Shown piece after piece: positions 14,618-22,824 of a stretch of 34,215 nt of DNA. The position numbers and the translations under genes were made by a program. The stretch covers positions 1 through 34,215 of the forward strand of contig JAUIKV010000004.1 in the NCBI GenBank assembly GCA_030430615.1. Direction: 5' to 3'. The number at the start of each line of letters is the position of its first letter. The stretch's first letter is position 1. This stretch comes from Bacteroidia bacterium. GTDB lineage: Bacteria; Bacteroidota; Bacteroidia; Flavobacteriales; Flavobacteriaceae. The notes below the pieces were generated by a model. The model saw only the letters and a list, made by a program, of their open reading frames with translations, had not been told where the DNA came from and did no database searches.

Positions 14618-15865
14618 TCACAAATTATATTGGTTTATTTTTCTGTAAAGCGTGCGTTCAGAGATACCCAGTTCTCTAGCCGCAAGTTTTCTTTTGCCTT
14701 TGTTTCGATCCAGCGCCTGTTTGATCATTTCAAGCTCTTTTTCCTGAAGCGACAGTGTCTCTTCTATGGTCTCGGCCTCATCGTAAGAAACAATTTTAGG
14801 ATTCTCCTCGTAGGTGGTGTCTTCCTCTGCATCCGCAATGATCTCCAGGGTGTTGCTCTTGCCATCTTTAGAATCTTTTCCGTAGATCTTGTCGATAAGC
14901 AGTTTTGTTGTTTCCTGTGGGGGTTGATTCTGCGAACCTTCCTTGATCAGCTGCCGGGTGAGGTTTTTCAGATCGGTAATGTCATTTCGCATGTCAAAGA
15001 GCACCTTGTACAGGATTTCCCGTTCGTTGGCAAAATCGGATTCGGGCTTCTTATCCGAGATGATGGCCGGAAGATTCTGGTGGTAGTCAGGAAGGTAGGA
15101 CATCAGAATTTCGCGGCTGATGTTTCTGTTTTGCTCAATCACCGAAATCTGTTCTGTAAGATTTCTCAACTGGCGAATATTGCCTTTCCACTCGTAAGAT
15201 TCAAGGGTCTCGACCGCCTCATCGTTCAAGCGCACCGTCGGCATTTTGTACTTTTGGGCGAAATCGGAGGCAAACTTGCGGAACAACAAGTGTATGTCAT
15301 CGGCACGGTCCCTGAGGGGGGGTAGCCATATTTCCACCGTGCTAAGCCTGTAGTAAAGGTCTTCCCGGAACTTTCCTTTTTTGATGGCTTCCTCCATGTT
15401 CAAATTGGTCGCAGCCACAATTCTAACATCCGTCTTCTGAACCTTTGAGGATCCGACCTTCAAGAATTCCCCGTTTTCCAAAACCCTCAGCAGCCGAACC
15501 TGAGTGGTCAGGGGAAGCTCTCCAACCTCATCCAGGAAAATGGTTCCGCCATCAGCAACTTCAAAATATCCGCTGCGCGTCTGTGAAGCACCGGTGAAGG
15601 ACCCTTTCTCATGTCCAAAGAGTTCGCTGTCGATAGTTCCCTCCGGGATGGCCCCGCAATTCACTGCGATGTATTTGGCGTGTTTCCGATGGGAGAGATT
15701 GTGAATTATTTTTGGAATCACTTCTTTTCCGACCCCGCTTTCACCCCGAACCAGAACCGATATGTCGGTAGGGGCTACGCGCATGGCTTTTTGCAATGCC
15801 ACGTTGAGTTGATTGTTGTTCCCGATGATTCCGAAACGTTGCTTTATGGTTTGGAGTGATTCCAT
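14618..15865 (-). CDS. Sigma-54 interaction domain transcriptional activator without N-terminal receiver domain
   Basis: [15 protein letters not shown] (Walker A), [13 protein letters not shown] (GAFTGA loop variant), [13 protein letters not shown] (Walker B), C-terminal Fis-type [20 protein letters not shown]. Confidence 0.93.
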
Positions 15866-15873
15866 GATTGATG

Positions 15874-17319
15874 CTATTTCCTTATTCTTGTGCCGATGAG
15901 GGTGGCCGAAGTACAGTCTTCTATCTTGACCTGAACAAGATCACCGACTTTCTCGTCTCCTTTCGGGAATACAGCGACCGCATTTTGTGTGTTTCTGCCC
16001 ATCCAGTGCTGATCCGACTTTTTGGAATTCCCCTCGATGAGGATCTCCACGGTCTTGCCCACGAACTGTTTCATTCTATACATGCCGTGCTTTTGCTGCA
16101 ACTGGATGATTTCAGCCAGCCGTCGTTTTTTGACCTCGAGAGGAACGTCATCTTCCATTCGCTTGGCGGCCGGGGTGCCCGGTCTCTCCGAATAGGCGAA
16201 CATAAACCCGAAATCGTATTTGACATATTCCATCAAAGACAAAGTATCCTGGTGATCTTCTTCTGTTTCTCCGCAGAATCCGGCAATCATGTCCTGTGAG
16301 ATCGCACAGTCGGGAATAATGCGTCGAATGTTGTCAATGAGCTCCATGTATTCTTCGCGCGTATGCTGTCGATTCATCCGCTCCAGCATGCGTGTGCTTC
16401 CTGTCTGAACAGGCAGGTGAATGTATTTGCAGATGTTATCGTATTTGGCCATTGTATGAAGAACATCCAAACTCATATCCTGGGGATTGGATGTGGCAAA
16501 ACGAATTCTCATCTTTGGAACCGCAAGGGCCACCATCTCCATCAGTCCCGCAAAGTCCACTGCAGTGGAACGAGCGATCTCTGAAGCTTTCTCAAAATCC
16601 TTTTTCAATCCGCCGCCGTACCACAGGTACGAATCCACATTTTGGCCCAAAAGAGTAATCTCCTTGTAGCCCTCTTCCCAGAGCTGAATGGCTTCATTGA
16701 CAATGCTCTTCGGGTCCCGGCTGCGTTCTCGGCCCCGGGTGAAGGGAACCACGCAAAAGGTGCACATGTTGTCACAACCTCTTGTTATCGAAATAAAAGC
16801 GGATACCCCATTGCTGTTCAGTCTTACAGGGGTCACATCGCCATAAGTCTCTTCTTTGGACAGTATAACGTTGATCGCGTCTTTTCCATCCTCGATTTCT
16901 TTGACCAGGTTGGGAAGATCCCGGTAGGCATCGGGCCCAACAACGAGATCCACCATTTTCTCTTCTTCCAGAAATTTGGTTTTCAGACGTTCGGCCATGC
17001 ATCCCATCACACCGATTTTCATCGAAGGATTGATTTTCTTTACCCTATTATACTGCTGCAATCGTTTGCGAACCGTCTGTTCCGCTTTCTCGCGAATGGA
17101 GCAGGTATTGACGAGAACCAGGTCAGCTTCTTCGAGAAGGGTAGTGGTGTTGAATCCTTCGCCAGCTAGAATGGATGCGACTATTTCACTGTCGTTCAGA
17201 TTCATCTGGCAACCATAACTCTCAATAAAAAGCTTTTTGCCATTACCCTCCAGATTCTCTGTTATCAGGGCCTGTCCTTGCTTTTTCTCTTCAATAATGT
17301 GTTCGCTCGCCATTGTCAT
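15874..17319 (-). CDS. miaB: tRNA-2-methylthio-N6-dimethylallyladenosine synthase
   Basis: [41 protein letters not shown] radical SAM motif, C-terminal TRAM domain. Start at 17319 (MTMASEH) or 17313, downstream of a -7 box. Confidence 0.95.
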
Positions 17320-17332
17320 TTTTTTGGAAATG

Positions 17333-17340
17333 CAAAGATA
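17333..17340 (-). promoter_or_regulatory. Putative -7 box TATCTTTG for the miaB operon
   Basis: Minus strand TATCTTTG (plus CAAAGATA), about 14 nt before the first miaB ATG. Confidence 0.5.
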
Positions 17341-17456
17341 CAATCAAAATTCTTTTTTCTGCCATTTTGACAGAAAAAGTCAGTTCAATGCGGGTTTTTG
17401 AACGACTTAAAAGCACTTGTTTTTACAGACCGAGGAATGATTTAATTTTTTCTGTC

Positions 17457-17496: not shown

Positions 17497-19983
17497 ATGT
17501 CGAAGAATCTAGTTATAGTAGAGTCGCCTGCCAAGGCCAAAACAATCGAGCGTTTTCTGGGCAAAGATTTTGTCGTGGAATCGAGCTTTGGTCATATTGT
17601 TGACTTGCCTTCCAAGGAGTTAGGAGTCAATGTCGAAGGTGACTTTTCACCCAATTACAGTGTTTCCAGCGATAAGAAAGCGGTGGTTAAAAAATTGAAA
17701 TCCCTTGCAAAGAAAGCGGATACAGTTTGGCTGGCAAGTGATGAAGATCGCGAAGGAGAAGCTATAGCCTGGCATCTTTTCGAGCAACTCAAATTGAAGG
17801 ACCTCGACACAAAACGAATCGTTTTTCACGAGATCACTAAAAAGGCTATTCTCAAAGCCATTGAGAATCCGAGAAGCATAGATTACAATCTGGTCAATGC
17901 TCAACAGGCCAGACGCGTTCTCGACAGGCTCGTGGGTTACGAGCTTTCTCCAGTGCTTTGGCGTAAGGTCAAAGGAGGATTGAGCGCCGGACGAGTTCAG
18001 TCGGTAGCTGTTCGATTAATCGTTGAACGGGAAAGGGAGATCGAGAAGTTTGAGCCCGTAGCTTCGTATCGTGTAGTTGGAGAATTTTCTACGGATGAAG
18101 GTTCGAGCTTCCAGGCCAAGTTGCCTCAGAATTTCAAAACCCGAGAGGAAGCAGAAGAATTTTTGCAGTCCTGCGTCTCCGCGACATTCAAAGTGGAAGA
18201 CCTCAGTACCAAACCTGCCAAGAAAACACCAGCCGCTCCTTTTACCACTTCAACACTTCAACAGGAGGCGTCGCGAAAATTGTATTTCCCGGTGGCCAAA
18301 ACCATGATGGTCGCCCAGCGGTTGTATGAAGAAGGATTGATCACTTACATGCGTACCGACAGTGTCAACCTTTCCGGTGATGCCATCAATGAGGCCCAGG
18401 AAGAGATCAAATCCACATATGGACCCGAATTCAGCAAGCCCCGAAACTACTCGACAAAATCCAAAGGCGCTCAGGAGGCGCATGAGGCTATTCGTCCGAC
18501 GAATTTAAGTACCAGGAGCATACAGGCTGACAATGACAAGACACGATTGTACGATCTGATCTGGAAAAGAACCATAGCGTCTCAGATGAGCGATGCTCAA
18601 CTTGAGCGAACCAATGTCCGAATAAGCAACGACAAGAATGAAAAGGTGTTTACCGCCAACGGTGAGGTCATCACTTTTGAAGGCTTTTTGAAAGTCTATC
18701 TTGAAGGAAAGGACAACGATGATGACGAACAGGCAGGAATGCTTCCAAGGTTGAGTCTTAACGAGAATTTGGAGAATCAGAACATAAGGGCTACAGAACG
18801 TTACACAAAACCGCCTTACCGGTATACGGAGGCTTCATTGGTGCGCCAGCTTGAAGAGCTCGGGATCGGCAGGCCATCTACATATGCCCCGACGATTTCT
18901 ACGATTCAGCGTAGAGAATACGTAGTGAAGGGAACGGCAGAAGGAAAGGAAAGATCTTATACTGAATTGGTCCTGTCTCAGGACAAAATCAGTTCAGAGG
19001 TCCTCACTGAAACTGTTGGAGCCGATAAAGGCAAGCTCATGCCCACAGACATAGGGAAGATCGTCAACGATTTTCTTGTGGAGAACTTCAGCGACATTCT
19101 CGATTACAGCTTCACAGCCAATGTTGAAAAAGAATTTGATGACATTGCTGAAGGCAAGGGGAATTGGACTGAAATGATCAAGGAATTCTACGGCAATTTT
19201 CACGATCAGGTAGAGGACGTAGCACAAAATGCGGATCGCGCCAAAGGGGAAAGGCTCCTCGGTGTGGATCCGGAGTCGGGGAAGAATGTTTACGCCCGAT
19301 TGGGCAGGTTTGGCGCCATGGTGCAGATCGGTGAGGCCACAGATGAGGAGAAACCGAGGTTTGCAAGCCTGCAAGGCGAGCAGACGCTGGACACAATTAC
19401 CTTCGAAGAAGCCATGGAACTGTTCAGGTTGCCTAAGGATCTTGGGAAGTTCGAGGAACAGGAGGTCATAGTCGCCAATGGTCGGTATGGACCATATATA
19501 AGATTTGGAAAGAGTTTTATTTCGCTTGACAAAGATGAGAACCCACTCTCTGTAGACATGGCCAGGGCCATTGAACTGATCGAAAAGAAACGCAAAGCCG
19601 ATGCCCCGATTGGTGAATATGAGGGGATGCCCATTCAAAAAGGTGTAGGGCGCTTCGGACCTTTCATCAAGTGGAACAACACATTCATCAATGTGAACAA
19701 AAGCTATGATTTCGACAACCTGACCCAGCAGGATCTCGAGGATCTGATCGAGACCAAGAAAAGAAAGGACAGGGAGAAGGTCATTCACAATTGGGAAGAG
19801 GAAGGCATCCGGGTTGAAAAGGCGCGATGGGGAAGGCACAACATCATCAAAGGGAAGACGAAAATCGAGCTGCCCAAAACTGTGGACGCCCAGGTCCTCA
19901 CTCTCGAGGAGGTGCAGGATCTTCTCGAGAAGAATGCTCCGAAAAAAACCAAAGGCCGCCGTAAGGCAGTGAAGAAGAAGTAA
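17497..19983 (+). CDS. topA: DNA topoisomerase I
   Basis: MSKNLVIVESPAKAKTIERFLGKDFVVESSFGHIVDLP; LITYMRTDSVNLS active-site region; GIGRPSTYAPTISTIQ. Confidence 0.98.
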   Translation: MSKNLVIVESPAKAKTIERFLGKDFVVESSFGHIVDLPSKELGVNVEGDFSPNYSVSSDKKAVVKKLKSLAKKADTVWLASDEDREGEAIAWHLFEQLKLKDLDTKRIVFHEITKKAILKAIENPRSIDYNLVNAQQARRVLDRLVGYELSPVLWRKVKGGLSAGRVQSVAVRLIVEREREIEKFEPVASYRVVGEFSTDEGSSFQAKLPQNFKTREEAEEFLQSCVSATFKVEDLSTKPAKKTPAAPFTTSTLQQEASRKLYFPVAKTMMVAQRLYEEGLITYMRTDSVNLSGDAINEAQEEIKSTYGPEFSKPRNYSTKSKGAQEAHEAIRPTNLSTRSIQADNDKTRLYDLIWKRTIASQMSDAQLERTNVRISNDKNEKVFTANGEVITFEGFLKVYLEGKDNDDDEQAGMLPRLSLNENLENQNIRATERYTKPPYRYTEASLVRQLEELGIGRPSTYAPTISTIQRREYVVKGTAEGKERSYTELVLSQDKISSEVLTETVGADKGKLMPTDIGKIVNDFLVENFSDILDYSFTANVEKEFDDIAEGKGNWTEMIKEFYGNFHDQVEDVAQNADRAKGERLLGVDPESGKNVYARLGRFGAMVQIGEATDEEKPRFASLQGEQTLDTITFEEAMELFRLPKDLGKFEEQEVIVANGRYGPYIRFGKSFISLDKDENPLSVDMARAIELIEKKRKADAPIGEYEGMPIQKGVGRFGPFIKWNNTFINVNKSYDFDNLTQQDLEDLIETKKRKDREKVIHNWEEEGIRVEKARWGRHNIIKGKTKIELPKTVDAQVLTLEEVQDLLEKNAPKKTKGRRKAVKKK

Positions 19984-20006: not shown

Positions 20007-20038
20007 AGTCCCACCGGCTCATGCCGGTGGGACTTTTT
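20007..20038 (+). terminator. Terminator after topA
   Basis: AGTCCCACCGGC-tcat-GCCGGTGGGACT followed by TTTT; 12-bp perfect stem. Confidence 0.92.
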
Positions 20039-20112: not shown

Positions 20113-21270
20113 ATGAGTCTGGACCTCCTTATCCCCGTAGAAGAACTGGCTGTGGCACATACAGCGTTGCAATCTGATCTTAGCCTGGGCAACCGCATCG
20201 GACTGCATACCCGACAAGAAGGCTTGCCTGACTTGAAAGGAGCCTCGCTGGCCATAATTGGCATACTGGAAGGTCGAGGTGCGGCAGACAATCTGGGAAC
20301 GGGAAAAAATCTCGAGCTTGTCAGGAAATACCTGTACCAGATGTTTCCGGGGAACTGGCACAGCAAAATAGTCGATTTGGGTAACATCCAAAAAGGCAAG
20401 GAGGTGTCAGACACCTATTATATAGTCAAAGAGGTTCTCTCTGAGCTTATCCGGCAGAATGTGGTTCCAATCGTCATAGGTGGGAGCCAGGATCTGACTT
20501 ATGCCAATTACCGCGCCTACGACAAGTTGGGTCAGCCCGTGAACCTGGTCTCCGTTGACAACAGGTTTGACCTGGGGGAACTCGATCCCAAAATCAACTC
20601 CTATAACTACCTCCACCATATTATAATGGACAAGCCCACCAATCTGTTCAACTTCAGCAACCTGGGTTTTCAAACCTTTTTTAACTCTCAGGAAGAGATA
20701 GACCTGATGGACCGCTTGTTTTTTGACGCCTACCGCTTAGGGGAGATCTCCTCTGACCTGACCCAGGTGGAACCGGTCCTGAGGGATGCCGATATGGTGA
20801 GCATAGACCTTGGATCGATTCGAATGGGAGATGCCCCGGGAAACAACAATGCGGCACCAAACGGGTTTTACGGTGAGGAGATCTGCGCAATCTCCCGCTA
20901 CGCAGGACTGAGCAGAAAGGTGTCTTCGTTCGGAATCTATGAGTACAACCCGAAGCACGACCAGCGTGAGCAGACTGCTCACCTGATCGCCCAAATGATC
21001 TGGTATTTCATCGAGGGCTACAACCTTCGCATCGATGAGTTTCCGTTCGAGTCGAAGAGGAACTACAAGAAGTATATCGTCATGGTCGAGAATGAAACCA
21101 TCAATTTCTTCAAAAGCGATAAAAGCGAAAGATGGTGGATGGAGATCAACTACACCCATAATAAAACCGAGAAATCTACGTTAATACCCTGTGCGTATCA
21201 AGATTATTTGACAGCAAGTAATCAGATATTCCCAGAAAGATGGTTAAAAACATTTAGAAAATTGAATTAG
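20113..21270 (+). CDS. Arginase/formimidoylglutamase-fold protein with degenerate metal-binding motifs
   Basis: Ureohydrolase-like core: VVPIVIGGSQDLTYANYRAY, VNLVSVDNRFDLGE, DADMVSIDLGSIRMGDAPG, SFGIYEYNPKHD; C-terminal extension of about 70 aa. Confidence 0.82.
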   Translation: MSLDLLIPVEELAVAHTALQSDLSLGNRIGLHTRQEGLPDLKGASLAIIGILEGRGAADNLGTGKNLELVRKYLYQMFPGNWHSKIVDLGNIQKGKEVSDTYYIVKEVLSELIRQNVVPIVIGGSQDLTYANYRAYDKLGQPVNLVSVDNRFDLGELDPKINSYNYLHHIIMDKPTNLFNFSNLGFQTFFNSQEEIDLMDRLFFDAYRLGEISSDLTQVEPVLRDADMVSIDLGSIRMGDAPGNNNAAPNGFYGEEICAISRYAGLSRKVSSFGIYEYNPKHDQREQTAHLIAQMIWYFIEGYNLRIDEFPFESKRNYKKYIVMVENETINFFKSDKSERWWMEINYTHNKTEKSTLIPCAYQDYLTASNQIFPERWLKTFRKLN

Positions 21271-21426: not shown

Positions 21427-22824
21427 ATGAAAAAGTTATCCCTAATCCTAACACTGTTTGTTCTGATACTTTTGAGCAGTTGTAAGTCTGGAAATGACAG
21501 AGGCCAACTGGTAGGAGTCAGTGCGAACAAAAAATTCTTTCCTGAAAAACCTTACGGAATGGTTTTGATTCCTGGAGGTGCATTCACGATGGGTAAAGGT
21601 GATGAGGATGTTGCGGGAGCGTTTAGTGCCCCTTCGAGAACCGTTACGGTGAGACCATATTATATGGATGACACCGAGATCACCAACAGCGAGTATCGCG
21701 AATTCGTTTTTAGGGTTAGAGATTCTATCCTGAGGACGAAACTGGCCATTTTGGCTGAAGAGGCTTCGATCGGTGGAAGTGAATCCATTGAACAGAACAA
21801 GGGCGATCTCTCGGGAATTTCAAAATATGCGTTCAAAGAGCAGGACAGCGCAGACAATGCGTACTACAAATACATGATGGACAACTACGGTAGTCTGGGA
21901 GATATCAACTCGCCTACCGAAGGAAGATATTTGAATTGGGACGTGGAATTGGTATGGGATACCAACGAATTCCCAGATGAGTATTACGCCGAGGCTATGG
22001 ACAGCATTTACCTGCCAGTTGACGAGGCTATGGAGCGCAAGCGCAGAATTGACACTAAAAAGCTCAAGTATGTCTACATGACTTACGATCAGGCTGGAGC
22101 TGCCAAAAGAAGCGGGAATCCAAAAGATTTTCTCAAGAAGGTTGAAGTTGAGGTATATCCTGACACTGCGGTTTGGGTGAAGGACTTCAACTACTCGTAC
22201 AACGATCCGATGCACCAGGATTATTTCTGGCACCAGGCTTACAATGAGTATCCTGTAGTAGGTGTTACCTGGAGTCAGGCCAAAGCGTTCTGTAACTTCA
22301 GAACGGATAAAAGAAACAACTTCCTCGCCGGGCGCAAGAAAGGAGCTTCCGGAAGAGAGCCAAGCTTCCGATTGCCAACTGAGGCAGAATGGGAGTATGC
22401 GGCACGCGGCGGACTGGAATATGCAAAATACCCATGGGGTGGACCTTATACAATGACCGACAGAGGTTGCTTCCTGGCAAACTTCAAGCCTGAGAGAGGT
22501 AACTATGCGGCTGACGGCGCCCTTTACACAGTGGAGGCAAAGTCTTACAACGCGAACGATTACGGACTGTACAACATGGCCGGTAACGTTTCGGAATGGA
22601 CCAATACAGCGTATAACCCTTCATCGTATTACCTCGGATCGACCATGAATCCAAACGTTGTTGACAATGACAACCAGCGAAAAGTAATCCGTGGAGGATC
22701 CTGGAAGGACGTAGCCTATTTCCTCGAAGTGGGAACCCGTGACTACGAATACGGCGACTCAGCGAGAAGCTACATCGGATTCCGAACCGTTCAGGACTAT
22801 ATGGGAACAAAAATTTCAGACTAA
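21427..22824 (+). CDS. gldK: Gliding motility/T9SS lipoprotein GldK (FGE-sulfatase fold)
   Basis: Lipobox LLSSCKSG; GMVLIPGGAFTMGKGDEDV, FRLPTEAEWEYAARGGLEYAKYPWGG, NMAGNVSEW, VIRGGSWKD; followed by gldL-M-N. Confidence 0.95.
   Translation: MKKLSLILTLFVLILLSSCKSGNDRGQLVGVSANKKFFPEKPYGMVLIPGGAFTMGKGDEDVAGAFSAPSRTVTVRPYYMDDTEITNSEYREFVFRVRDSILRTKLAILAEEASIGGSESIEQNKGDLSGISKYAFKEQDSADNAYYKYMMDNYGSLGDINSPTEGRYLNWDVELVWDTNEFPDEYYAEAMDSIYLPVDEAMERKRRIDTKKLKYVYMTYDQAGAAKRSGNPKDFLKKVEVEVYPDTAVWVKDFNYSYNDPMHQDYFWHQAYNEYPVVGVTWSQAKAFCNFRTDKRNNFLAGRKKGASGREPSFRLPTEAEWEYAARGGLEYAKYPWGGPYTMTDRGCFLANFKPERGNYAADGALYTVEAKSYNANDYGLYNMAGNVSEWTNTAYNPSSYYLGSTMNPNVVDNDNQRKVIRGGSWKDVAYFLEVGTRDYEYGDSARSYIGFRTVQDYMGTKISD

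What the first reader, a model, noticed from the sequence alone, without database searches (positions are those of the whole stretch)
20113..21270. Arginase-fold probable pseudoenzyme fixed between topA and the T9SS core operon
The sequence has a recognisable ureohydrolase core, but three of the six canonical Mn ligands appear lost. GGDHS reads GGSQD (His to Gln), DAHxD reads DNRFD (His to Arg, both Asp kept), and SxDxDxxDP reads SIDLGSIRMGDAP (second Asp to Gly). It also carries an extra C-terminal tail of about 70 aa (KRNYKKYIVMVENETINFFKSDKSERWWMEINY...). It lies immediately upstream of and co-directional with gldKLMN. Automated annotation would probably call it formimidoylglutamase, which the residues do not support. 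A dead enzyme scaffold beside gldK, itself built on an FGE fold without the catalytic Cys pair, suggests a structural or regulatory role in gliding/type IX secretion.
Basis: partly seen in the sequence, partly recalled or inferred. Interest (0 to 1): 0.68.

Follow-up and report, generated by a model that had tools for sequence, protein, structure and literature searches.

The report
Dead arginase-like protein heading T9SS operon
A gene that automatic annotation would call a histidine-breakdown enzyme is a metal-less, catalytically dead relative with its own extra tail; nearly all Bacteroidia genomes sampled carry it, often at the head of the type IX secretion operon, and I found no paper that studies it.

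Summary
Window 20113-21270 (+) encodes a 385-aa arginase-fold protein with three of six Mn ligands lost (Q126, R151, G234; D149, D153, D232 kept) and a ~78-aa C-terminal tail. It lies between topA and gldKLMN in every Flavobacteriaceae locus that could be read (108 of 108).

Beyond the window, it belongs to one clade (support 100/100) found in 372 of 396 Bacteroidia genomes. None of 210 members keeps more than four ligands, while paralogues in the same genomes are intact. The tail is an undescribed domain found nowhere else, with invariant F332, W341, W342 and C360. In 34 of 66 families the gene order is topA - this gene - (porP) - gldK-L-M-N. dN/dS is 0.01-0.10, so the gene is functional and not decaying.

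[quoted passage not shown] About half the families have the gene away from gld genes. Several lineages have T9SS without it. One 99%-complete genome lacks GldM, SprA and GldK but keeps it.

Best reading: a cytosolic pseudoenzyme scaffold, probably a T9SS accessory or regulator. Rival: a housekeeping regulator that only travels with the operon. No published study was found in the library searched.

The parts
17497..19983 (+). topA, DNA topoisomerase I; conserved upstream neighbour
   Evidence: TIGR01051 718.8 bits; upstream of the gene in all readable Flavobacteriaceae loci and in most gldK-linked families
20007..20034 (+). intrinsic terminator after topA: 12-bp perfect stem, 4-nt loop, then T-run
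20113..21270 (+). argL (label used here only): arginase-fold pseudoenzyme, 385 aa, predicted cytosolic (no signal peptide or hydrophobic segment)
20479..20493 (+). degenerate GGDHS motif: GGSQD (residues 123-127), ligand His -> Gln126
20557..20571 (+). degenerate DAHxD motif: DNRFD (149-153), ligand His -> Arg151, both Asp kept
20722..20790 (+). signature specific to the pseudoenzyme clade, residues 204-226 (F204, R208, G210, E220-P221, R224, A226)
   Evidence: 85-100% in 67 family representatives, 0-11% in intact ureohydrolases
20800..20841 (+). degenerate SxDxDxxxP motif: SIDLGSIRMGDAPG (230-243), second ligand Asp -> Gly234
21034..21267 (+). C-terminal orphan tail domain (residues 308-385), four strands plus two helices; F332, W341, W342 and C360 invariant in an 80-sequence alignment
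21427..22824 (+). gldK (PorK/GldK)
   Evidence: TIGR03525 579.5 bits
22884..23513 (+). gldL
   Evidence: TIGR03513 196.6 bits
23566..25110 (+). gldM
   Evidence: TIGR03517 441 bits
25124..26020 (+). gldN
   Evidence: TIGR03523 268.3 bits

Best explanation
The gene encodes a cytosolic pseudoenzyme. A ureohydrolase ancestor lost its metal site once, gained a C-terminal domain, and its descendants spread through most of class Bacteroidia. In many descendants Arg or Lys takes the place of a metal-binding His next to three retained Asp, so a salt bridge may replace the metal cluster (inferred). The fold is kept as a scaffold and the tail carries the conserved working surface (inferred). Its most likely job is non-catalytic, as an accessory or regulator of the type IX secretion and gliding machine with whose core operon (porP-gldKLMN) it is encoded. 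The plausible contact is the only large cytoplasmic part of that core, the GldL cytoplasmic domain (inferred, untested). Shown: ligand loss, single origin, tail, purifying selection, operon linkage, near-universal co-occurrence. Inferred: lack of activity, T9SS function, partner.
For: Ligand loss in all 210 tail-bearing sequences, against intact HDHDDD in paralogues of the same genomes and in tail-less out-of-class relatives; the window's own genome has an intact paralogue (GGDHS, DAHSD, SLDLD). One clade, 100/100, built without ligand and tail columns. AF2 pLDDT 93; best PDB matches are ureohydrolases. Tail only in this gene, one copy per genome, only in Bacteroidia. dN/dS 0.01-0.10, same range as topA and gldK. 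Linkage: 108 of 108 readable Flavobacteriaceae loci; topA-gene-(PorP)-gldKLMN in 34 of 66 families; only 6 changes of gldK linkage on the tree of 76 rows. In one family lacking gldK linkage the gene lies beside murF-gldJ-porP (L152). Present in 370 of 387 T9SS-positive against 2 of 9 T9SS-negative genomes. No signal peptide or TM segment. Precedent for a pseudo-arginase with a non-catalytic partner role: MetCb (PMC11271267).
Against: Unlinked to gld genes in about half the families. T9SS-positive genomes without the gene: 17 of 387, in a few families, plus 6 in Flavobacteriales. G488 lacks GldM, SprA and GldK but keeps an intact copy. The co-occurrence statistic is not corrected for phylogeny; five of the seven joint absences are one family (f11) whose T9SS-positive members also lack the gene, and the other two are small genomes (0.5 and 1.2 Mb). 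miaB and topA belong to the same conserved block. No interaction or mutant data exist here.
Confidence: 0.5

Rival explanations
1. A pseudoenzyme with a general regulatory or structural role in the Bacteroidia cytosol, unrelated to T9SS; it sits beside gldK because an old block miaB-topA-gene-porP-gldKLMN has been inherited.
For: G488 keeps the gene without GldM, SprA and GldK. Half the families have other contexts, including a divergent SDR/epimerase neighbour in about 13 families. topA linkage without gldK in f2, f64 and f87. T9SS without the gene in f10, f11, f96, f105 and f114.
Against: The order gene-porP-gldKLMN is kept across dozens of families although it can be broken; the gene is absent from most T9SS-negative genomes in the sample, with the caveats on family f11, reduced genomes and contig gaps.
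Confidence: 0.35
2. An enzyme or ligand sensor with new chemistry: the old pocket is reused without the binuclear metal, with the clade-specific residues F204, R208, E220, R224 and W297 as the new site.
For: E220, R224 and W297 are 99-100% conserved in the clade and almost absent from intact relatives; the three Asp are mostly kept.
Against: The pocket is scrambled in several lineages (e.g. NSISND in f2) and the N-terminal half is degenerate or missing in L152-L155, while the tail stays conserved. These residues may simply pack against the tail.
Confidence: 0.15
3. A nucleic-acid-binding regulator: the four-strand-plus-helix tail binds DNA or RNA and controls the operon or topA.
For: The tail topology resembles several nucleic-acid-binding folds at non-significant E-values (integrase arm domain 3jtz, E 0.16, TM 0.41; Pur-alpha and PC4-like proteins at E 2-3); next to topA.
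Against: No significant structural match. Profile comparison with the PUR/DUF3276 family gives 0.1% probability. No Pfam match.
Confidence: 0.08
4. A non-catalytic subunit of an active ureohydrolase, as MetCb is for MetCa.
For: Best Foldseek match is the metformin hydrolase heteromer; many genomes, including this one, have an intact paralogue.
Against: No genetic linkage to the paralogue. Many genomes in the phylum survey had the gene as their only match, e.g. G021, G053, G107. Some members lack most of the arginase core.
Confidence: 0.04
5. A working formimidoylglutamase/HutG, as automatic annotation would say.
For: Weak HutG family match, 94.7 bits.
Against: Below the 229-bit cut-off; H->R151 and D->G234 remove one metal site; clade-wide loss.
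Confidence: 0.02

Closest known systems
Formimidoylglutamase HutG (TIGR01227; structures 3m1r, 1xfk, 4mxr)
   Same: Same fold over residues ~45-305; closest solved relatives by profile
   Different: Three of six metal ligands lost, below the family cut-off, extra 78-aa tail, clade-specific signature 204-226
MetCb/MfmB, metal-free subunit of metformin hydrolase (8ryi, 8x3g; PMC11271267)
   Same: A ureohydrolase-fold pseudoenzyme that lost metal ligands and works as a protein partner; best Foldseek match
   Different: MetCb pairs with an active ureohydrolase in one operon and is recent; this one has no paired enzyme, an extra domain and a class-wide distribution
Trypanosoma brucei arginase-like protein and the Fusobacterium ODC/arginase domain (cited in PMC11271267)
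   Same: Arginase folds without a binuclear metal centre, function elusive
   Different: Narrow taxa; no tail domain of this kind and no secretion-operon link is recalled for them (not tested here)
PorP-PorKLMN / GldKLMN core operon of the T9SS
   Same: The gene is encoded with it in 34 of 66 families
   Different: In the papers read it is not listed among T9SS or gliding genes (e.g. PMC7440613); missing from some T9SS lineages

Membership tests
Ureohydrolase/arginase superfamily (fold) | Arginase fold, PF00491 above cut-off | tested here: met
   69.5 bits vs 22; AF2 model matches solved ureohydrolases, E ~1e-17
Ureohydrolase/arginase superfamily (enzyme) | Six ligands H-D-H-D-D-D for the binuclear metal | tested here: not met
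   Q-D-R-D-D-G in the window; 0 of 210 clade members keep five or six
Formimidoylglutamase HutG | TIGR01227 score above 229 bits | tested here: not met
   94.7 bits
Formimidoylglutamase HutG | Hydrolysis of formimidoylglutamate | not testable with these tools
   Needs an enzyme assay
T9SS/gliding gene set | Encoded with core T9SS genes | tested here: met
   34 of 66 families, 108 of 108 readable Flavobacteriaceae loci; about half the families are unlinked
T9SS/gliding gene set | Present and absent together with T9SS | tested here: inconclusive
   370/387 T9SS+ vs 2/9 T9SS-, p 4e-8 uncorrected, 0.008 without family f11; counterexample G488; T9SS+ lineages without it
T9SS/gliding gene set | Needed for secretion or gliding, or binds a component | not testable with these tools
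   Needs a mutant or pull-down
PUR-alpha/DUF3276 nucleic-acid-binding domain (for the tail) | Sequence-profile similarity | tested here: not met
   hhalign probability 0.1%

The most novel reading that the evidence does not exclude
An overlooked, near-universal cytosolic component of the Bacteroidia type IX secretion/gliding machine: a pseudoenzyme with an undescribed tail domain that docks on the cytoplasmic side of the GldLM motor and controls its assembly, stoichiometry or activity.
Probability: 0.35. Interest if true: 0.85.

Novelty: new variant of a known kind. Interest (0 to 1): 0.64.

Why it matters
Pseudo-arginases are known from a few narrow cases; this one marks most of a bacterial class, has a unique tail domain, and would by homology be mislabelled as a histidine-degradation enzyme. 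If it works with the T9SS, the secretion and gliding machine of Bacteroidota has a missing cytosolic part that can be tested directly in Flavobacterium johnsoniae. If it does not, a conserved class-level protein of unknown function still needs explaining.

Tried and rejected
Tail as a known domain: no Pfam match, no PDB sequence match below E 0.05, no significant Foldseek match in PDB or viral libraries. PUR-alpha idea tested by profile comparison and rejected. Tail against GldN: no similarity. Bacteroidetes-type promoter scan of the two intergenic gaps: nothing convincing. Sigma-70 scan is not informative in this phylum. Diverged copies sought with a second profile in T9SS-positive genomes that seemed to lack the gene: none found in f10, f11, f96, f105 or f114. 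Literature for a published link between an arginase-like or formimidoylglutamase gene and gldK/T9SS: none found. Co-occurrence as proof of T9SS function: rejected as decisive, because the losses are few and clustered by family and because linked genes vanish together in fragmented assemblies (G651 has its copy near a contig end; G345 too).

Full report
Observation. ORF 20113-21270 (+) is real. It has an arginase fold by Pfam, by profile search of PDB sequences and by an AF2 model with pLDDT 93 whose best PDB matches are metformin hydrolase and formimidoylglutamases. The HutG model is hit at 94.7 bits against a cut-off of 229. Ligand positions are Q126, D149, R151, D153, D232 and G234. From established arginase chemistry (own knowledge), His126 and Asp234 of arginase are the exclusive ligands of one Mn; both equivalents are gone here, so that site cannot form, and the other has lost its His.

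The clade. Related sequences from 67 family-level groups were aligned. Every sequence with the C-terminal tail lacks part of the metal site: of 210, none keeps five or six ligands; the His126 equivalent is lost in 65 of 67 family representatives and the Asp234 equivalent in 66 of 67. Intact HDHDDD paralogues sit elsewhere in the same genomes (L156-L168), and the nearest out-of-class relatives are intact or nearly so and have no tail. The window's own genome also has an intact ureohydrolase. A tree built without ligand and tail columns puts the 79 tail-bearing rows on one side of a branch with 100/100 support. So ligand loss and tail gain are best explained as a single old event.

What is conserved. 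The tail has F332, W341, W342 and C360 invariant in an 80-sequence alignment, and it survives in members whose arginase core is degenerate (L152-L155). It occurs once per genome, always in this gene, only in Bacteroidia (two marginal hits elsewhere at E 0.006-0.007). In the core a new signature appears (F204, R208, G210, E220-P221, R224, A226, C258, Y263, W297) that intact enzymes lack. Pocket positions vary freely in several lineages. dN/dS is 0.012-0.095 in 13 close pairs, in the range of topA and gldK. The gene is therefore selected, and the tail plus scaffold look more important than the pocket.

Surroundings. In all 108 Flavobacteriaceae loci whose contig reaches far enough, the order is topA-gene-gldK. 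In other families the usual order is topA-gene-porP-gldK-gldL-gldM-gldN, the extra gene being PorP/SprF (TIGR03519). By my count, 34 of 66 families are gldK-linked, f2, f64 and f87 are linked to topA only, and about 29 are unlinked. gldK linkage needs only six changes on the tree. Among unlinked families, the gene is next to murF-gldJ-porP in L152 (f5), and next to a similar opposite-strand group in f91. About 13 families show a divergent SDR/epimerase neighbour. In the window a strong terminator separates topA from the gene. Family labels such as f5 are the anonymous ones of the genome search; only the Flavobacteriaceae loci bear names.

Does it follow the T9SS? In 396 Bacteroidia genomes the gene was found in 372 (after removing G528, which only has a weak paralogue hit), and GldM in 385. 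Adding SprA gives 387 T9SS-positive and 9 T9SS-negative genomes, with the gene in 370 and 2 respectively (Fisher p 4e-8, not corrected for phylogeny). Family f11 contributes five of seven joint absences, and its T9SS-positive members also lack the gene; without f11 p is 0.008. The remaining joint absences are genomes of 0.5 and 1.2 Mb. G488 is a clean counterexample: 99% complete, no GldM, SprA or GldK over cut-off, gene intact. G345 is ambiguous because its copy is at a contig edge and it has a GldJ-like protein. In Flavobacteriales the T9SS-negative genomes searched, mostly 0.6-Mb ones, lack the gene except G651, whose copy is near a contig end, and six T9SS-positive genomes lack it. The association is strong but not obligate in either direction.

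Mechanism. The protein has no signal peptide or membrane segment, so it should be cytosolic, while GldK and GldN are periplasmic or outer-membrane proteins. If it acts on the T9SS, the GldL cytoplasmic domain (residues 59-189 in F. johnsoniae, PMC8986121) is the natural partner. This is inference. MetCb (PMC11271267) shows that a metal-free arginase fold can work as a binding partner.

Known or new. No paper in the library links an arginase-like protein with gldK or T9SS. The library holds open-licence papers only, so this is not proof that none exists. I file it as a new variant of a known kind (arginase-fold pseudoenzymes), with an undescribed domain and a probable but unproven T9SS connection.

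Noticed in passing
window 21427-22824 (gldK): GldK is not free of conserved cysteines: AFCNFR and DRGCFLANF look like the two conserved Cys of F. johnsoniae GldK, one of which forms disulfides with SprF and PorG (PMC12635249).
   Followed up: partly
L152-L155 (family f5) and L240 (f92): Extreme members keep the tail but have a shortened or unrecognisable arginase core (no Pfam Arginase hit in L152, L154 and L155), as if the tail were the part under strongest selection.
   Followed up: partly
L141, L142, L144-L146 (family f2): In f2 the gene stays near topA but away from gldK; the ligands read NSISND and the WW of the tail is WY.
   Followed up: no
L200, L210, L220, L227, L229, L241, L243, L248, L249, L258, L113, L117: Recurrent divergent neighbour of the gene in families unlinked to gldK: an SDR/NAD-dependent epimerase (weak HpnA-like match).
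   Followed up: partly
L128, L131, L138 (family f4): The gene is followed closely by a gene whose product looks like a PBP4-type D-alanyl-D-alanine carboxypeptidase (recognised by eye, not scanned).
   Followed up: no
L124 (family f6): GldK here is 678 aa with a large insertion and GldN is 421 aa, much longer than usual.
   Followed up: no
window 14618-17343: A sigma-54-type response regulator and a MiaB-like gene (both on the - strand) are part of the conserved block upstream of topA in many families.
   Followed up: no
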